Source of the DNA: a candidate division WOR-3 bacterium
GTDB taxonomy: Bacteria; Hydrothermota; Tepidihabitantia; Tepidihabitantales; Tepidihabitantaceae
DNA: 34,523 bases
Direction of reading: 5' to 3'
Assembly: GCA_039801245.1 (NCBI GenBank)
Contig: JBDRUF010000016.1
Span: forward strand, 1-34,523
Translations under genes and position numbers: made by a program
Shown: one piece after another, positions 5,697-12,401 of the stretch
Layout: each line of letters starts with the position of its first letter
How positions within the stretch are numbered: the first letter of the stretch is position 1
The notes under the pieces: model-generated
The model's database searches: none
Told to the model about the DNA's origin: nothing
The model's input: the letters and a program-made list of their open reading frames with translations, nothing else

Positions 5697-8258
5697 TTAT
5701 TGCGTAAGAAGAATTTTTCTAGTCAAGTGAAGACGGTTAGCCTGGAGATAGATAAAGTAGGCGCCTGGTGGAAGGCGGTTACGGCTTTCGTCAGTGCCGT
5801 CCCAGAAAAAGGTGTGGTTGCCCGCCTGCTTGTCTGCTTGGTTTAACAGGCGAACCAGTCTGCCATCAGCGCTAAAGATTTTGATTTCTGCCTTTGCCGG
5901 ATAGGGCAGGTGATATCTTATCTCCACATAATTACGGAAGGGGTTCGGTGAAACGGTCGCCTGTAAACTCAACTTTTCTGAAGAGCCGCTCTGAATCCCA
6001 ACAATCTCATCCCTGAACACATAAATGTGGGATGTCGGGCAGGAGACAAAGACCCGATTTCCAAGAGAGTCAAAACCAGAGCCGAATATCTGGTTGGCTA
6101 TTCCCACAGGAATGGGAAACTGGACAAGTCTATCAATGGTATCAAGGTCGGCATCAATAAACAGGATACCGCCATTAAGCGAGTCGTTGGCATCAAGACA
6201 CCAGTAGACCCGGCTTGCCTGCGGATGGCTGAATGGTCTTGGAAACTGCGACCTCGAACCAGGCAGGAGAATAGAATCTATGATGCTGTCGGTCGGTCCG
6301 TCAATCACCAAGATAAATGAATAACGGCTGAAGTAAGCCTTGTTCTTTACCGGCTGCCAGGTTGCGCCCATTACATATCCTGAAATGGAGTCAAGCATCG
6401 TATCCGCTATCGCATCTGCCGAGTAAAACATACCCTGGAAATTTAAAGGGAGGACAGTGAAATACAGTTTGTTGTCCTTCAGGTTGCAGGCACCAGGCGG
6501 CGAAGGAAAGAAGAATGGTCTATGAGGAATCGTGGTGAGAAGAGAGTTGGTAACACCATCAACAACATTGAGATGGGCGATATCCTCAATATAGACCTTA
6601 TTCACGCCGCTGTGCCAGACTATCCAGGGAGAAGAGTTAGACGGGTCAATGGGAATCGGCACGACAGCGATAACCGTATCGGCGTCATAATCAATCACAC
6701 TCAGGGCAGATGTAGCAGAGTGTGAGGAGTAAAGTTTGTGATTGGTGGTATTCACGGTCAGGTCAAACGGGTAAGGGGCAACAGGAATTGTCTTGATGAC
6801 CGTGTCCGCGAAGCAGTCAATCACCGAGAGGGAGTTGAGTTCAAAGTTTGAACAATACAACTTCCTTTTTTCTGGATGCAGGCACATCCGCAGTCCCTCA
6901 AATCCGCGCCGACCGGTGGCGATTGACTTGATAAGCCTGCCATTATCAGCGTTCAGGATAAAGAGGACATTATCAAGTGTATTGTAATCAAGGGAGTAGA
7001 CATATAACTTATTGACCAGCGGATTAAAGACAACATCCCCGAGCGCCGAAATGCCGGTTCTAATCGTATCCAGAACCTGAAGGTTTTCAGCATCAATCAC
7101 CAGAATCTGATTTGTATAATGACTGGTGGCGTAAAGCAGTTGTCGCTGAGGATTATAGCACAAATCAACCACCTTTCCGGGAACAGAAACCGAATCGGTG
7201 AAAAGCGTATCCGCATTGCAATCCAGAACCCTTATAAAGTTGCCTTTCATGAAATACAGCCGGTTCAATGTTGGGCTATGAACCGGTTTACAATATGAAG
7301 AGTGACCAGGTACTGAAAGCGTTTTAATAACACTATCATTTTCGCAGTTAATTACTGCAATAACCTCAGGGGCACCTGTCCTACAACCGAAACAGTATAG
7401 TTTATTGCTAAGCGAGTTATAGAAAAGATGGCAAAACTCTCCAAACTGGACCTCAGGCAGGCGTTTGATAATCCGGTTTGTTGCCCCATCAATAATGAGG
7501 AGGGCATTCGACAGGGTAAGATAGATTTTATTTGAGTGGGACAAATAGAGGGATTTGATAGCCCAGCCTGCGGTTTCTTCTAAGACAACGCTATCAATTA
7601 CCCGGTTGGTTCTGCCATCAATTACCGTCATTATACCCACGGAATGATTGTCAATGGTAAACACGCAATAGCGATTGTTGTGAGAATTCCAGACCATATC
7701 CAATATGTCGCGAGTGAAGCGCAACCGCATCCGGATTTGATTGGTTGTGCCATCCAGAACCGCCAGCCCGTAAAAGTATTTTTCAAATCCGTCCACGATT
7801 TGTTGGTCTGGCAAGGTATAATCCGGGATTTTCAATCTGGCAAGATAACAGTTTTCTGAGTCATTGAATACACCGGTAACCCCAGCAGGAACAACAGCAA
7901 CAATTGAATCTGTAGATGGGTCAATTACCACACTTCCCTTATAGGTGAAAATAAACACCCTGTTATTCCGCTGCCAGTAAAAAGCCCTTACTGTGCCATA
8001 AGCGGTTGGCAGGTCCTTGATGATGCGGTTGGTGGCACAGTCAACCACAATTGTCCAGCCCATATCACCGGCGCAATAGAGTTTACTGCCATCGCCAGTG
8101 CATATTAGTGCGGATGGTTCGGTAGTTGCGCCGTGGTCTTCTGGATGATAATTTACCGGAATTACCTTTTCCAGATACTGGGCAGAGAGATTTAATAATG
8201 AACCGGAAATGGCAATGATACAAACAACTCTTAAAAACGGAGTGAAGTGTCGGGTCAT
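5697..8258 (-). CDS. Secreted YVTN-type beta-propeller protein with C-terminal sorting/FlgD-like domain
   Basis: An 853-aa exported protein. ATG 8258 is chosen because GGAGG lies about 7 nt upstream; a TTG two codons earlier sits too close to it. The N-terminus (MTRHFTPFLRVVCIIAISGS...) is a signal peptide with a likely cut near LSA|QYLEK. The body is made of many repeats of about 40-45 residues built around 'VIDGxTNRIIKxLP' / 'VIDCxxDSVIKTI', the surface-propeller YVTN type, alternating with 'NKLYC' strands. The last 85 residues or so (VSPNPFRNYVEIRY..., IFSADGRLVRLL..., PPGAYFIYL) form the C-terminal Ig-like module seen in type A sorting or FlgD-like domains of FCB bacteria. The kelch gene ends 22 bp upstream, so this is the second gene of that operon. 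Confidence 0.88.
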   Translation of the reverse strand: MTRHFTPFLRVVCIIAISGSLLNLSAQYLEKVIPVNYHPEDHGATTEPSALICTGDGSKLYCAGDMGWTIVVDCATNRIIKDLPTAYGTVRAFYWQRNNRVFIFTYKGSVVIDPSTDSIVAVVPAGVTGVFNDSENCYLARLKIPDYTLPDQQIVDGFEKYFYGLAVLDGTTNQIRMRLRFTRDILDMVWNSHNNRYCVFTIDNHSVGIMTVIDGRTNRVIDSVVLEETAGWAIKSLYLSHSNKIYLTLSNALLIIDGATNRIIKRLPEVQFGEFCHLFYNSLSNKLYCFGCRTGAPEVIAVINCENDSVIKTLSVPGHSSYCKPVHSPTLNRLYFMKGNFIRVLDCNADTLFTDSVSVPGKVVDLCYNPQRQLLYATSHYTNQILVIDAENLQVLDTIRTGISALGDVVFNPLVNKLYVYSLDYNTLDNVLFILNADNGRLIKSIATGRRGFEGLRMCLHPEKRKLYCSNFELNSLSVIDCFADTVIKTIPVAPYPFDLTVNTTNHKLYSSHSATSALSVIDYDADTVIAVVPIPIDPSNSSPWIVWHSGVNKVYIEDIAHLNVVDGVTNSLLTTIPHRPFFFPSPPGACNLKDNKLYFTVLPLNFQGMFYSADAIADTMLDSISGYVMGATWQPVKNKAYFSRYSFILVIDGPTDSIIDSILLPGSRSQFPRPFSHPQASRVYWCLDANDSLNGGILFIDADLDTIDRLVQFPIPVGIANQIFGSGFDSLGNRVFVSCPTSHIYVFRDEIVGIQSGSSEKLSLQATVSPNPFRNYVEIRYHLPYPAKAEIKIFSADGRLVRLLNQADKQAGNHTFFWDGTDESRNRLPPGAYFIYLQANRLHLTRKILLTQ

Positions 8259-8280: not shown

Positions 8281-9650
8281 CTATCTGACAACCAGTTTCA
8301 ATGACTGCTGGTTGCCATTTGCTGCCTCTAACCTCAATAGATACACACCGGCAGGGACCTGAGTTTTAGCATCTGAACACCGGTTCCAGGTTAAAGAATG
8401 AGTTCCAGGGTTAAGTTGCTGGTCAAGAAGTGTGTGGACAAGTTCACCGGCAGCGTTATAGATTTTTGCCTGATAGTGCGAACTGTGGAGAACTGAAAAG
8501 CGGATGATGGTCTTATTAGAGAATGGATTGGGATTGGCAAAGAACTGCTGATTTTCCATTTGGGTTACACCGGAAACCTGTTCTCCACCAGGTTCTGAGC
8601 AACCGCCCCGGTAGTAGATTTTCCAGAAATTTCGGCTGCCACCTCCAAAGAATGCGTAGTAGAAGTAATCTTCACCATAGGCCGTCGCTGCACCCATCTG
8701 AATAATTTCAGGTGTAGGCGAGTAAGCGCGAGTGTTCCAATTGCTGGGCCAAAGAGCCACCATTCTTGCCCCGGCTCTATCATCATTAGGACCTTTTGCC
8801 AGGCAGAAAAGATACCAAGCAAGCGAAGGTTCGCAGTTCATAGAGGTCATAGCGGTTCCCGGTCCCGGGGTAACAGGCAGATATTTGGAGTTATGCCAAT
8901 CGTTATCAGCAGGGCTGTAGGCGATAATCTGTTTTCGTTCATCGCTTTGCTGCATAGAATCACAGGGAGCACAAAAGATTGAATCCAGCGTCAGGTTGGA
9001 GTTGTGAATCCAAGTGAGACTGGCACCCGGACAGGCATGAAGGTCTACCCGGTGTCCATAAGGGTCGCGATAATGCATGGAATCAAGGCGATACCAGTTG
9101 TAGGTAGTGCCTTTGGGTCGGGGACCGCCTGCAGCACCTGGACCATATGGACCATAATGGTAGAAGTGAGTGCTACCACCACCGATGAGTGCATACACAA
9201 AGAAGTACTCACCTCTGCGGGCAAAGGTAAGCGCACCACCAGACTTGACCGGTTCTGGAATGTCAGGCAGTCGCTGCCAGGTATTACTAATAATGTCATA
9301 GAGCCAGAATTCGGGTGTGTTGCCGCCGCGCAGGGCGTATATCACCCCGAATGTGTCAGCCGTGAGTGCAGCACCGTCAAAAAAGGTAGGCGTATTTGAG
9401 TTAATAACATACCAGGTGTTACAGGGAATGCTGTATCTCAGAAAGGCGTTAGTTCCACCGCCCATAATCGCATATAACTGCCCCTGTCCGCCGTATGTTA
9501 AAGCGGCACCGGGTTGAGGTCCAGGCACTTGAGGCGGAATTGGCGCAAGTTGAATCCAGTCGGCATTAGCAGGACCGATGAGCGCAAAAATCAGGGTCGC
9601 AATGAGGATGAAGGGGGTAGTTTCTCTTCTCTTCTCTTCTCTTCTCTCAT
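8281..9650 (-). CDS. Secreted kelch-like propeller protein, apparently phase-OFF through a 5-bp repeat in its start region
   Basis: From GTG 9528 the open frame encodes 415 aa with kelch-like blocks (GGALTF..., IYALRGGNTPEFWLYDIISN, 'TWQRLPDIP'). A C-terminal 'NPFSNKTIIRF ... VPAGVYLLRLE' sorting module follows. That frame continues upstream without a stop or any start codon, encoding a signal peptide (TTPFILIATLIFALIGPANA, then DW). The only good start is ATG 9650-9648 with AGGAG 5 nt upstream (9656-9660). It is in another frame and stops after 19 codons (TGA 9593-9591). Between them lies the pentanucleotide tract 9624-9647. Removing one 5-bp unit (or adding two) restores a 454-aa protein beginning MREEKRRE before the signal core. 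I therefore annotate the gene from 9650 as phase-variable and currently OFF. A sequence error is the alternative. Confidence 0.82.
9624..9647 (-). repeat. Pentanucleotide simple-sequence repeat (AAGAG on coding strand)
   Basis: The plus strand reads CTCTT four times followed by CTCT, ending directly beside the ATG complement (CAT, 9648-9650). On the coding strand this is ATG, AGAG, then four AAGAG units. The unit length is not a multiple of three, so each gain or loss shifts the frame of the kelch gene. The same unit on the coding strand (CTCTT) controls opa genes in Neisseria; here the coding strand carries the complement and encodes a basic/acidic n-region (REEKRRE). Confidence 0.95.
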
Positions 9651-9664
9651 CTTTACTCCTTTCT

Positions 9665-9685
9665 GAGCGGATTACCGCTCTTTTT
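9665..9685. promoter_or_regulatory. Stem-loop in the leader of the kelch operon
   Basis: A perfect 6-bp stem, GAGCGG (9665-9670) and CCGCTC (9675-9680), with an ATTA loop. Read on the plus strand it is followed by TTTTT (9681-9685), the form of an intrinsic terminator for rightward (antisense) transcription. Read on the minus strand it sits in the 5' leader, ending 4-5 nt before the Shine-Dalgarno site of the kelch gene. It could therefore modulate ribosome access or block antisense readthrough. Confidence 0.6.
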
Positions 9686-9719: not shown

Positions 9720-9747
9720 ATTATACATCATCTTTATATTTTGTCAA
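9720..9747 (-). promoter_or_regulatory. Consensus housekeeping promoter of the kelch-YVTN operon
   Basis: On the minus strand a perfect TTGACA (9747-9742) and a perfect TATAAT (9725-9720) are separated by 16 bp. Transcription would start near 9713, giving a leader of about 60 nt that contains the stem-loop and the ribosome-binding site before ATG 9650. The CRTAC1-like gene ends at 9798, just upstream, so this promoter makes the kelch-YVTN pair an independent unit. Confidence 0.8.
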
Positions 9748-9797: not shown

Positions 9798-12401
9798 CTA
9801 CTCAGTTACGATTAGTAATATATCAGGCTTTATGTCCTTCAATTCTATCATTGCATTAGGTCCGAAGCGGACTTGAACGGTTAAGGGTTCATTTGATTTG
9901 CCTAAGCCGAAGTGCTGGATTAAGGAGTTCTGGCTGGTTGTGCCCTTGCCGCCTTCCACCTCCCTTATATATCTTTTTTTGCCCTGAATGACGGTAATGC
10001 GGGCACCAATGCCAGCAGCGTTGTGTTTTGTGCCTACAACCTTGACCTTGAGCCAGTGGTTGTCGTTTTTGGTGTCGTTGCGGAAAAGTTTAAGACCTGA
10101 GCCAGAGCCGACAATTAAGTCCATATCACCATCGTTGTCAAAGTCGGCAAATGCGCAGCCCCAGCCGTTGAACACCCTTGTGCCCGAAAGATAGGTGGCT
10201 TCGGTAAATTGCCAATGACCAATGTCTAATAGCCATTTTGGGGTTGGATTTAACTGGTTGAGATATAAAAATGAGCGTCTGCCTTCATAGATGGAGGTGA
10301 TGTAAAGGTCGAGGTCACCGTCGTTGTCAACATCGGCAAATGCCGGGTCAGAGTGGGTCTCTTCGTAACGGATGCCCAGTTGGGCGCGCCTGTCAATGAA
10401 TTGAGGGTTTGCCTTTGAACCGCGGTTTTCATAAAACATTGAGCGGTTCGAGAATTCAATGTAGCGGGGATGGGCAAGGTTGGCGCAGAACAGGTCAAGG
10501 TCGGAGTCGTTGTCATAATCTGCCCAGACCGAACCAATGGTATGACCGAACCAGCCCGAGACCTCTTTGCCCGCGATGCCCAGTTTTGGTGCAAGGTTGG
10601 TGAAGGTACCGTTCTGGTTGTTATGCCAGAGAAAATTCTGGCAAAGGCGGTAGTTGGAGACATAACAGTCAGGATAGCCGTCGTCATTGTAATCTGCCCA
10701 GTTCACACCCCTGCCGGCAAGGGGTTCGTTATATGGAGGGATGATTCCGGCTTTTTCAGTGATGTCCTTGAAGATGTCCTGCTCGTTTTTGTAGAGGCGG
10801 TCAGGGTAGTAGCGGTGTTCTTCCCAGTTTTCATAGTTGGCGCAGTAGATGTCAACCCAGCCATCCTGGTCAAAGTCGGCAACACCGCAGCCTTCGGTTG
10901 GATAGGGGTCAGAGGGAGAGCCCAGCGATTCGGTGCGGTCATAAAATCTGCCAAAACGGTTGAGGAGGAGATGGTCACTGGTGTCTGAGCCGCAGATGTA
11001 GATGTCAAGCCAGTAGTCATTGTTGAAGTCGGCAAAGATGCCGCCTCGTCCCTGCACACCAGTTAAACCCACGGAGTCGGTAACATCGGTAAAGTATCTG
11101 CCGGAGTCGTTGCGAAAAAGGCGGCAGCCGTTAAGTAGCAGATCCTCATAGCCATCATTGTTGTAATCGCCCCAGGCGACACGGGATTCTCTGCGACCAC
11201 CAAGACCAAATGAGTCGGTGACATCCGTGAAGAGCGGACCAGAATAGTTTAATAGCCTCCGCGCCAGTTTTAACTGTTCATGAGGGGAGATGCCCATTTT
11301 TTGCAGGGCGGTGTCAGCGCGGCTTGACCAGTAGTTGCGCGAGTCGCCAAAGGCTATTGCCTTTAAATAGGCAAGTTGCGCACTGTCATTTTTACCCAAG
11401 GCTTGATAAACCTCACCTAAGAGGCAGAAATAGGGTGCGGGTGTTGCTTCGTTCTCGGTATCCCAGGAGAACCTGTTTATCGCCTCATAAAGATATGGCA
11501 AAGCCTCTGAATGCCGGTTCTGAATTATTAGCGCCTCGGCAAGTGTAGCCCGGGCGAGCCCGTATAAGAGCGGGTATTCAAGTTGCCACTGCTCAATCGG
11601 CTTGTTTTTAGGCTTTTTTGCCTTTGGCTCAAGTTCTATCGCCTTGCGGGCATAACCTTCGGCAACTTCGGGTCGGAAACGAAGGCGATTGAAAAGGGCA
11701 GCGGCATAGCGGTAACGAAAGGGGTCAAGGGAGTCGTCATTTATCATCTGCTCTGCCATCTGGGCAAGGCTGATGGTGTCCTTTAACCCATAAAGGGAGC
11801 TCAAGAGATAGATGTAGAATGTCTGACGCCATTCGGTCTGGGGATAACGGGCAAGGAAGCGGGAGATGACGAGGGTTTTGGCGGTGTCGTTGTTCCAGAC
11901 CGGATATAAGGAGTCGTAGAACATTGCACCGATTAATTCATAGACCGGTGCAGAATCAGGAAACATTAATGCGAGGACACTGGCGGCGCGGCGGGCGCGG
12001 GTTGTATCTGAGAGATTGAACCCGGCAAAGGAAATAAGCAGGGCGCGATAGGTGGTGTCAATAAAGTAATTTTTTGCCTCACTGGCAATGACTTGTTTAA
12101 CCGAATCAAGCTGAATTGTGTCATTTTTGTGCAGGTTGTAAAGCGCCTGCCATCTGCCGATTATTGCCGAGTCGTCATCAGGGTTTATTTTTAGCGCCCT
12201 TTCCCACCAAAAGAGGCTGGAGTCATAGCGGTGCCAGTGGTCGTAAACCCGGGCAAGGTCCTTGATTGCACTGAGGTTTTTTGGCTTACGCTGAATCTGC
12301 TGAAAATAGTGGTGTGTTGCCGCCTGGTAGTCCTGAAATGCAAGAAAGTCAGCGAGCGACGGCGGGGCAGAGAGAAGGAAAACGATTAAAGGAAAACTCA
12401 T
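9798..12401 (-). CDS. Secreted CRTAC1-like protein: TPR region, FG-GAP/VCBS repeats, ASPIC/UnbV domain
   Basis: An 867-aa exported protein. MSFPLIVFLLSAPPSLA is a short signal peptide. Residues of about 20-380 are helical TPR-like repeats (for example 'SLFWWERALKINPDDDSA', 'YATKAIELEPK'-like blocks). From about 390 to 760 come FG-GAP/VCBS repeats with calcium-loop-like acidic motifs (GDYNNDGYED, ADFNNDYWLD, ADFDQDGWVD, ADVDNDGDLD, ADFDNDGDMD). The last 80 residues or so (NHWLKVKVVGTKHNAAGIGARI..., VQVRFGPNAMIELKD) are the ASPIC/UnbV domain. No sorting module follows. There is no Shine-Dalgarno site before ATG 12401 and the predicted promoter places transcription at or next to the ATG, so the message may be leaderless. 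Likely role, by family only: extracellular or envelope binding. Confidence 0.9.
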   Translation of the reverse strand: MSFPLIVFLLSAPPSLADFLAFQDYQAATHHYFQQIQRKPKNLSAIKDLARVYDHWHRYDSSLFWWERALKINPDDDSAIIGRWQALYNLHKNDTIQLDSVKQVIASEAKNYFIDTTYRALLISFAGFNLSDTTRARRAASVLALMFPDSAPVYELIGAMFYDSLYPVWNNDTAKTLVISRFLARYPQTEWRQTFYIYLLSSLYGLKDTISLAQMAEQMINDDSLDPFRYRYAAALFNRLRFRPEVAEGYARKAIELEPKAKKPKNKPIEQWQLEYPLLYGLARATLAEALIIQNRHSEALPYLYEAINRFSWDTENEATPAPYFCLLGEVYQALGKNDSAQLAYLKAIAFGDSRNYWSSRADTALQKMGISPHEQLKLARRLLNYSGPLFTDVTDSFGLGGRRESRVAWGDYNNDGYEDLLLNGCRLFRNDSGRYFTDVTDSVGLTGVQGRGGIFADFNNDYWLDIYICGSDTSDHLLLNRFGRFYDRTESLGSPSDPYPTEGCGVADFDQDGWVDIYCANYENWEEHRYYPDRLYKNEQDIFKDITEKAGIIPPYNEPLAGRGVNWADYNDDGYPDCYVSNYRLCQNFLWHNNQNGTFTNLAPKLGIAGKEVSGWFGHTIGSVWADYDNDSDLDLFCANLAHPRYIEFSNRSMFYENRGSKANPQFIDRRAQLGIRYEETHSDPAFADVDNDGDLDLYITSIYEGRRSFLYLNQLNPTPKWLLDIGHWQFTEATYLSGTRVFNGWGCAFADFDNDGDMDLIVGSGSGLKLFRNDTKNDNHWLKVKVVGTKHNAAGIGARITVIQGKKRYIREVEGGKGTTSQNSLIQHFGLGKSNEPLTVQVRFGPNAMIELKDIKPDILLIVTE

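What the first reader, a model, noticed from the sequence alone, without database searches (positions are those of the whole stretch)
8281..9680. Apparent phase-variable surface kelch protein controlled by a CTCTT/AAGAG pentanucleotide tract
Directly visible: ATG 9650-9648 with AGGAG 5 nt upstream is followed at once by AGAG and four AAGAG units (9624-9647). The ATG frame ends at TGA 9593-9591 after 19 codons. The frame shifted relative to it encodes a clean signal peptide core (TTPFILIATLIFALIGPANA) and runs without a stop into a 400+ residue kelch protein. That frame has no ATG/GTG/TTG of its own between an upstream TAG and the repeat. Loss of one 5-bp unit, or gain of two, joins them exactly. 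Known precedent: Neisseria opa genes switch through CTCTT repeats in the signal-peptide region. Inference: slipped-strand switching of an exported protein in an uncultured lineage, OFF in this sequence.
Basis: partly seen in the sequence, partly recalled or inferred. Interest (0 to 1): 0.9.

Follow-up and report, generated by a model that had tools for sequence, protein, structure and literature searches.

The report
Repeat-tract switch on exported WOR-3 protein
An uncultured WOR-3 bacterium carries a stuttering five-letter DNA repeat right after the start codon of a gene for a secreted surface protein, and gaining or losing repeat units should switch that gene on or off; a sister species has the same repeat at the same gene with a different count, so this is very probably a real stochastic on/off switch in a group where we found no earlier report of one.

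Summary
A strong Shine-Dalgarno site and ATG (9650) run straight into a pure 26-bp AAGAG tract (9622-9647). The ATG frame stops after 19 codons. The signal peptide and the rest of a 447-codon exported protein lie in another frame, which losing one unit or gaining two would restore. This is the only period-5 run of 17 bp or more in 1.42 Mb of the genome. The decisive new evidence is a sister species (SKW181, candidate division WOR-3). It has the same three genes in the same order, a 55%-identical protein, and a pure 45-bp AAGAG tract after the same start codon. It too is out of frame, but in the other wrong frame, needing +1 or -2 units. Silent sites between the two genes are near saturation while the protein is under purifying selection, so these are not dead genes. 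The C-terminus is a type IX secretion (T9SS) sorting domain, and the genome encodes the T9SS translocon SprA. In a distant WOR-3 family, two genomes have AAGAG or CT tracts just after the start codon of other exported-protein genes. Best reading: translational phase variation of a T9SS cargo by slipped-strand mispairing. Switching itself is not shown; no reads or same-species strains were available.

The parts
9720..9747 (-). promoter: TTGACA, 16-nt spacer, TATAAT
   Evidence: 12 of 12 consensus matches
9655..9659 (-). Shine-Dalgarno site AGGAG, 5 nt before the ATG
   Evidence: sequence
9591..9650 (-). OFF-state reading frame from the ATG, 19 codons, ends at TGA 9593-9591
   Evidence: translation
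9622..9647 (-). pure AAGAG tract, 26 bp (5.2 units), the proposed switch
   Evidence: same tract of 45 bp in the ortholog
9562..9624 (-). signal peptide core ETTPFILIATLIFALIGPANA in the long frame
   Evidence: mean hydropathy 3.16 over 12 residues against at most 1.34 in the mature protein
8281..9624 (-). long frame of the exported protein (447 codons and stop): signal peptide, propeller-like body, T9SS tail
   Evidence: ortholog 54-55% identical; purifying selection
8287..8532 (-). T9SS type A sorting domain (Por_Secre_tail / FlgD_ig)
   Evidence: PF18962 29.1 bits in the genome search; TIGR04183 35 bits, cut-off 23
5697..8258 (-). downstream gene: YVTN-type beta-propeller with T9SS tail, start 22 bp after the stop; probably same transcript
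   Evidence: syntenic in G002
9798..12401 (-). upstream gene: TPR/FG-GAP/UnbV protein, conserved neighbour, not part of the switch

Best explanation
A contingency gene. A secreted T9SS cargo protein is switched ON and OFF by slipped-strand mispairing of the AAGAG tract between its start codon and its signal peptide. Transcription would not depend on the tract, since the promoter is intact. Ribosomes start at the ATG and read the tract, whose unit count modulo 3 decides whether they enter the frame of the signal peptide and protein (ON) or stop within about 14-30 codons (OFF). The assembled sequence is OFF. Shown: anatomy, frames, a conserved pure tract of different length in a sister species, purifying selection on the long frame, T9SS tail and translocon. 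Inferred: reversible slippage in living cells, secretion, and a benefit from heterogeneous surface display (phage or grazer escape, or attachment).
For: SD-ATG-tract-signal peptide anatomy with frame restored only at -1 or +2 units among the states tried. Only period-5 run of 17 bp or more in 1.42 Mb. Ortholog in G002/SKW181: same synteny, 45-bp pure tract at the same start codon, the other wrong frame, ON at +1 or -2. Long frame intact and under purifying selection while silent sites are nearly saturated: pS 0.77, pN 0.33. Consensus promoter. T9SS tail and SprA. In 147 phylum genomes all five AAGAG runs of 22 bp or more follow an SD-ATG start, and paralogs in G068 differ in (CT)n length and frame. 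Tract meets the length criterion of at least 5 units used for pentanucleotide phase-variable candidates in Neisseria (PMC5953494).
Against: No ON copy seen: both species are OFF, and the five loci of the phylum that lack a start of their own before the signal peptide are all OFF (about 0.13 by chance if a third were ON). No reads, so no within-population length variation shown. At 5.2 units the window's tract is short, so its slippage rate may be low. The difference of length is between species, not strains.
Confidence: 0.85

Rival explanations
1. Programmed ribosomal frameshifting: the tract is fixed and ribosomes slip on it, so the protein is always made at some level.
For: Both known copies are out of frame yet under selection; the tract contains tandem AGA codons, which can provoke frameshifting (general knowledge).
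Against: The window needs a -1 shift and the ortholog a +1 shift, so no single programmed shift fits. Tract length differs by 19 bp between species. No second conserved signal was found.
Confidence: 0.06
2. Assembly or sequencing error: a unit was miscounted and the gene is constitutively in frame.
For: Metagenome assembly; reads not available.
Against: 26- and 45-bp tracts lie well inside normal short reads; SKW181 is a SPAdes-style assembly at 25-fold coverage by its record name. An error would not explain a pure tract kept in two diverged species.
Confidence: 0.04
3. Decaying gene: a frame-breaking expansion killed it and the tract is debris.
For: OFF in both species; the third species of the genus lacks the gene at this site.
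Against: The rest of the frame is intact over 447 codons in both and strongly constrained, and the promoter is perfect.
Confidence: 0.03
4. The ATG with its tract is a short leader peptide that regulates translation of the gene behind it, and the count matters little.
For: In the distant genome G068 three of the tract-bearing leaders are followed by a second Shine-Dalgarno site and ATG in front of the signal peptide.
Against: In the window and in its sister there is no second start before the signal peptide. A leader would not need a pure repeat.
Confidence: 0.02

Closest known systems
Neisseria opa genes (CTCTT pentanucleotide phase variation)
   Same: Same repeated duplex (AAGAG/CTCTT); tract in the signal-sequence region at the 5' end of an exported-protein gene; unit count decides the frame (PMC13183285). 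[quoted passage not shown]
   Different: Here the coding strand carries AAGAG and encodes the charged n-region directly after the ATG; the product is an unrelated T9SS cargo, a single gene in the window's genome, in an uncultured phylum.
Simple-sequence-repeat contingency loci (Neisseria phasome, PMC5953494)
   Same: Coding-region tract of non-triplet units meeting the published threshold of 5 pentanucleotide units; intact gene behind it
   Different: The window's genome has almost no other such tracts, unlike the tens of phase-variable genes of Neisseria; no strain data
T9SS type A cargo proteins
   Same: Signal peptide plus C-terminal sorting domain above cut-off; SprA in the genome
   Different: Export gated by a repeat tract; the paper search for T9SS with phase variation listed 8 papers, none naming such a cargo switch in title or abstract start
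Gracilibacterium hypervariable repeat gene (PMC6851277)
   Same: Slipped-strand variation proposed for a gene of an uncultured bacterium from metagenome data
   Different: There repeats change tripeptide motifs inside the protein; here a 5-bp unit switches the frame after the start codon

Membership tests
SSR-mediated translational phase variation | Pure tandem tract of non-triplet units within the 5' coding region | tested here: met
   26 bp of AAGAG right after the ATG
SSR-mediated translational phase variation | Unit changes join or break the start codon and the main frame | tested here: met
   ON at -1 and +2 only, among -3 to +3
SSR-mediated translational phase variation | Tract length differs between homologous loci | tested here: met
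   26 bp against 45 bp in a sister species, different frames; between species, not strains
SSR-mediated translational phase variation | Reversible switching within a population | not testable with these tools
   no reads, no same-species strains
SSR-mediated translational phase variation | Gene behind the tract is functional (selected) | tested here: met
   pN 0.33, pS 0.77; codon positions 0.62/0.72/0.36
opa family (Neisseria) | CTCTT as the coding-strand motif and an Opa beta-barrel product | tested here: not met
   coding strand AAGAG; product carries a T9SS tail and a weak kelch match
T9SS type A cargo | C-terminal sorting domain above curated cut-off | tested here: met
   TIGR04183 35 bits (window) and 24 bits (ortholog), cut-off 23
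T9SS type A cargo | T9SS translocon in the genome | tested here: met
   SprA over cut-off in all three genomes of the genus, 0 of 14 control genomes
T9SS type A cargo | Secretion to the surface shown | not testable with these tools
   needs proteomics
Kelch-repeat proteins | Kelch motif above curated cut-off | tested here: not met
   Kelch_6 21.6 bits against 25.3; Kelch_3 18.9 against 22; structure model too poor to settle the fold (mean pLDDT 47)

The most novel reading that the evidence does not exclude
Start-codon slippage switches are a shared device of the WOR-3 phylum for exported proteins: a portable module of promoter, Shine-Dalgarno site, ATG and repeat (AAGAG or CT) placed in front of signal-peptide genes, here tuning T9SS surface display, in bacteria not known to live in an immune host.
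Probability: 0.4. Interest if true: 0.75.

Novelty: new member of a known kind. Interest (0 to 1): 0.62.

Why it matters
Slippage switches are known mostly from host-associated pathogens and commensals, where immune escape is the usual explanation (general knowledge). Finding one with cross-species support in an uncultured candidate phylum suggests that such switches may also serve other pressures, such as phages, grazers or attachment. It names a specific T9SS cargo whose state can be read from existing metagenome reads: counting repeat units at one 26-bp tract measures the ON/OFF ratio in nature without culture. It also warns annotators: the first conventional start in the long frame is GTG 9528, so a gene caller would miss the signal peptide and hide the switch.

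Tried and rejected
Chance repeat: rejected. Dead gene: rejected on selection and intact long frame. Programmed frameshift: disfavoured because the two species need opposite shifts. Kelch-like homologs in the third species G001: looked for a tract; none, and they are distant (L053, L054). The 'read backwards' control for the bare AAGAG pattern is uninformative because AAGAG reversed is a rotation of itself; the longer Shine-Dalgarno-ATG-tract pattern gave 0 control hits. Two hits of that pattern (G021:C5, EF-G-like; G068:C76, GuaA-like; named from sequence by eye) are in-frame coding runs inside conserved genes, not switches. The AlphaFold model from two sequences was too poor, so no fold search was run. 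A PDB sequence search found only FlgD. RNA folding of the 5' leader: stable in the window (z -2.6) but not in the sister (z 0.4), so not pursued. Literature: no paper holding both 'WOR-3' and 'phase variation', or 'WOR-3' and 'type IX secretion', in an open-access library only.

Full report
OBSERVATION. The - strand of the window reads AGGAG-TAAAG-ATG-AGAG-(AAGAG)4-AA from 9659 down to 9622. The pure period-5 run is 26 bp. From the ATG the frame stops after 19 codons. The long frame is open from after TAG 9690-9688 to TAG 8283-8281, has no ATG/GTG/TTG ahead of the tract, and runs through a strongly hydrophobic signal-peptide core. In-silico changes of unit count join the ATG and the long frame only at -1 and +2 among the seven states tried. 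About 3e-7 such runs are expected by chance in a genome of this size. In 1.42 Mb of the 1.70-Mb genome it is the only period-5 run of 17 bp or more.

ORGANISM AND CONTEXT. The window is contig 16 of a 70-contig, 97%-complete genome. The gene lies between a TPR/FG-GAP/UnbV protein and a YVTN-type propeller with a T9SS tail. A 12-of-12 sigma-70-type promoter ends about 70 nt before the ATG. The downstream gene starts 22 bp after the stop and is probably co-transcribed (inference), so OFF phases might also lower its expression through polarity (inference).

THE PROTEIN. The long frame ends in a T9SS type A sorting domain (TIGR04183, 35 bits against cut-off 23). The three genomes of the genus encode SprA above cut-off, and the window's genome has 63 such tails. 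The kelch assignment is below Pfam's cut-offs and the structure model was too poor to settle the fold. It is therefore best called a probable beta-propeller T9SS cargo.

THE DECISIVE COMPARISON. Among 61 genomes searched (the window's own and 60 relatives), one other has a full-length ortholog: G002, 54-55% identity, with the same neighbours on both sides. Right after its start codon (AAGGGGAAAAAATG) stands a pure 45-bp AAGAG tract, nine units. Its ATG frame stops after 16 codons; the signal peptide (NLIIALLFLFLSLADSINA) and the protein lie in another frame, reached at +1 or -2 units. So the two species keep the same tract at the same place, with different lengths, in different wrong frames. 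Silent sites between the genes are nearly saturated (pS 0.77) while replacement sites are constrained (pN 0.33), with codon-position identities 0.62/0.72/0.36. A dead gene would not look like this, and a non-slipping tract would not be expected to stay pure across this distance (inference). The third species of the genus keeps the upstream neighbour but lacks the gene there.

BEYOND THE GENUS. In 147 genomes of the phylum, AAGAG runs of 22 bp or more occur at five places, and all five follow a Shine-Dalgarno-ATG start: the two above, two in G068 and one in G069, both of a different family. In G069 the tract precedes a signal peptide and a subtilase domain and is out of frame, with a second frame break further down. 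In G068 six places share a promoter and leader. Two carry AAGAG (31 and 46 bp), and two 82%-identical paralogs carry (CT)15 and (CT)7, with their signal peptides in different wrong frames. Three of the G068 leaders (C22, C74, C37) are followed by a second Shine-Dalgarno site and ATG, so there the tract may act differently.

MECHANISM. Most likely, slipped-strand mispairing changes the unit count at replication, and the count modulo 3 sets whether the exported protein is made. Shown: anatomy, frames, cross-species length difference, selection, secretion signals. Inferred: switching in cells, and benefit. The lack of any ON copy is a mild concern: the five loci without a start of their own before the signal peptide (G000, G002, G069, G068 C118 and C70) are all OFF, probability about 0.13 if a third were ON. 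[quoted passage not shown]

RIVALS. A programmed frameshift would have to go -1 in one species and +1 in the other. Assembly error is unlikely for 26- and 45-bp tracts, and cannot explain conservation of the tract. Gene decay is contradicted by selection. A pure leader-peptide role has no second start to act on in this genus.

PLACE AMONG KNOWN SYSTEMS. It works like a Neisseria-type contingency locus and meets the published length criterion for pentanucleotide candidates (PMC5953494). It is not a member of the opa family: the coding strand is the opposite one and the product is unrelated. It is a new member of a known kind, in a phylum for which the searched library held no paper mentioning both WOR-3 and phase variation.

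Noticed in passing
L188, L189, L190, L157, L158 (G068, WOR-3 phylum, another family): Several genes share a near-identical promoter-SD-ATG leader that carries (AAGAG)n or (CT)n; two 82%-identical paralogs have (CT)15 and (CT)7 with their signal peptides in different wrong frames. Looks like a small phase-variable family.
   Followed up: partly
L159:8487-11840 (G069): 42-bp AAGAG tract after SD-ATG, before a signal peptide and a subtilase-domain protein, out of frame, with a second frame break near 8750.
   Followed up: partly
L125:15225-15252 (window genome, contig C40): Heptanucleotide (TGACCGA)4 tract, 28 bp, inside a 414-aa gene that looks by eye like a DegT-type sugar aminotransferase, in frame as assembled; matches in G001 and G002 are distant (39-45% identity over part of the protein). 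A second candidate slippage locus.
   Followed up: partly
L072:18322-18337 (window genome, contig C19): (TGCC)4 tract inside a 557-aa gene whose product ends in a FlgD-like tail (by eye), in frame as assembled.
   Followed up: no
L053:8506-9781 (G001): Distant kelch-like homolog with its own signal peptide and a frame break near a GGGGGAGG stretch around 8800; no repeat tract. Real or an assembly indel, not resolved.
   Followed up: partly
window 9665-9680: A GAGCGG-TAAT-CCGCTC hairpin stands just before the Shine-Dalgarno site; the sister species has a different hairpin nearby.
   Followed up: partly
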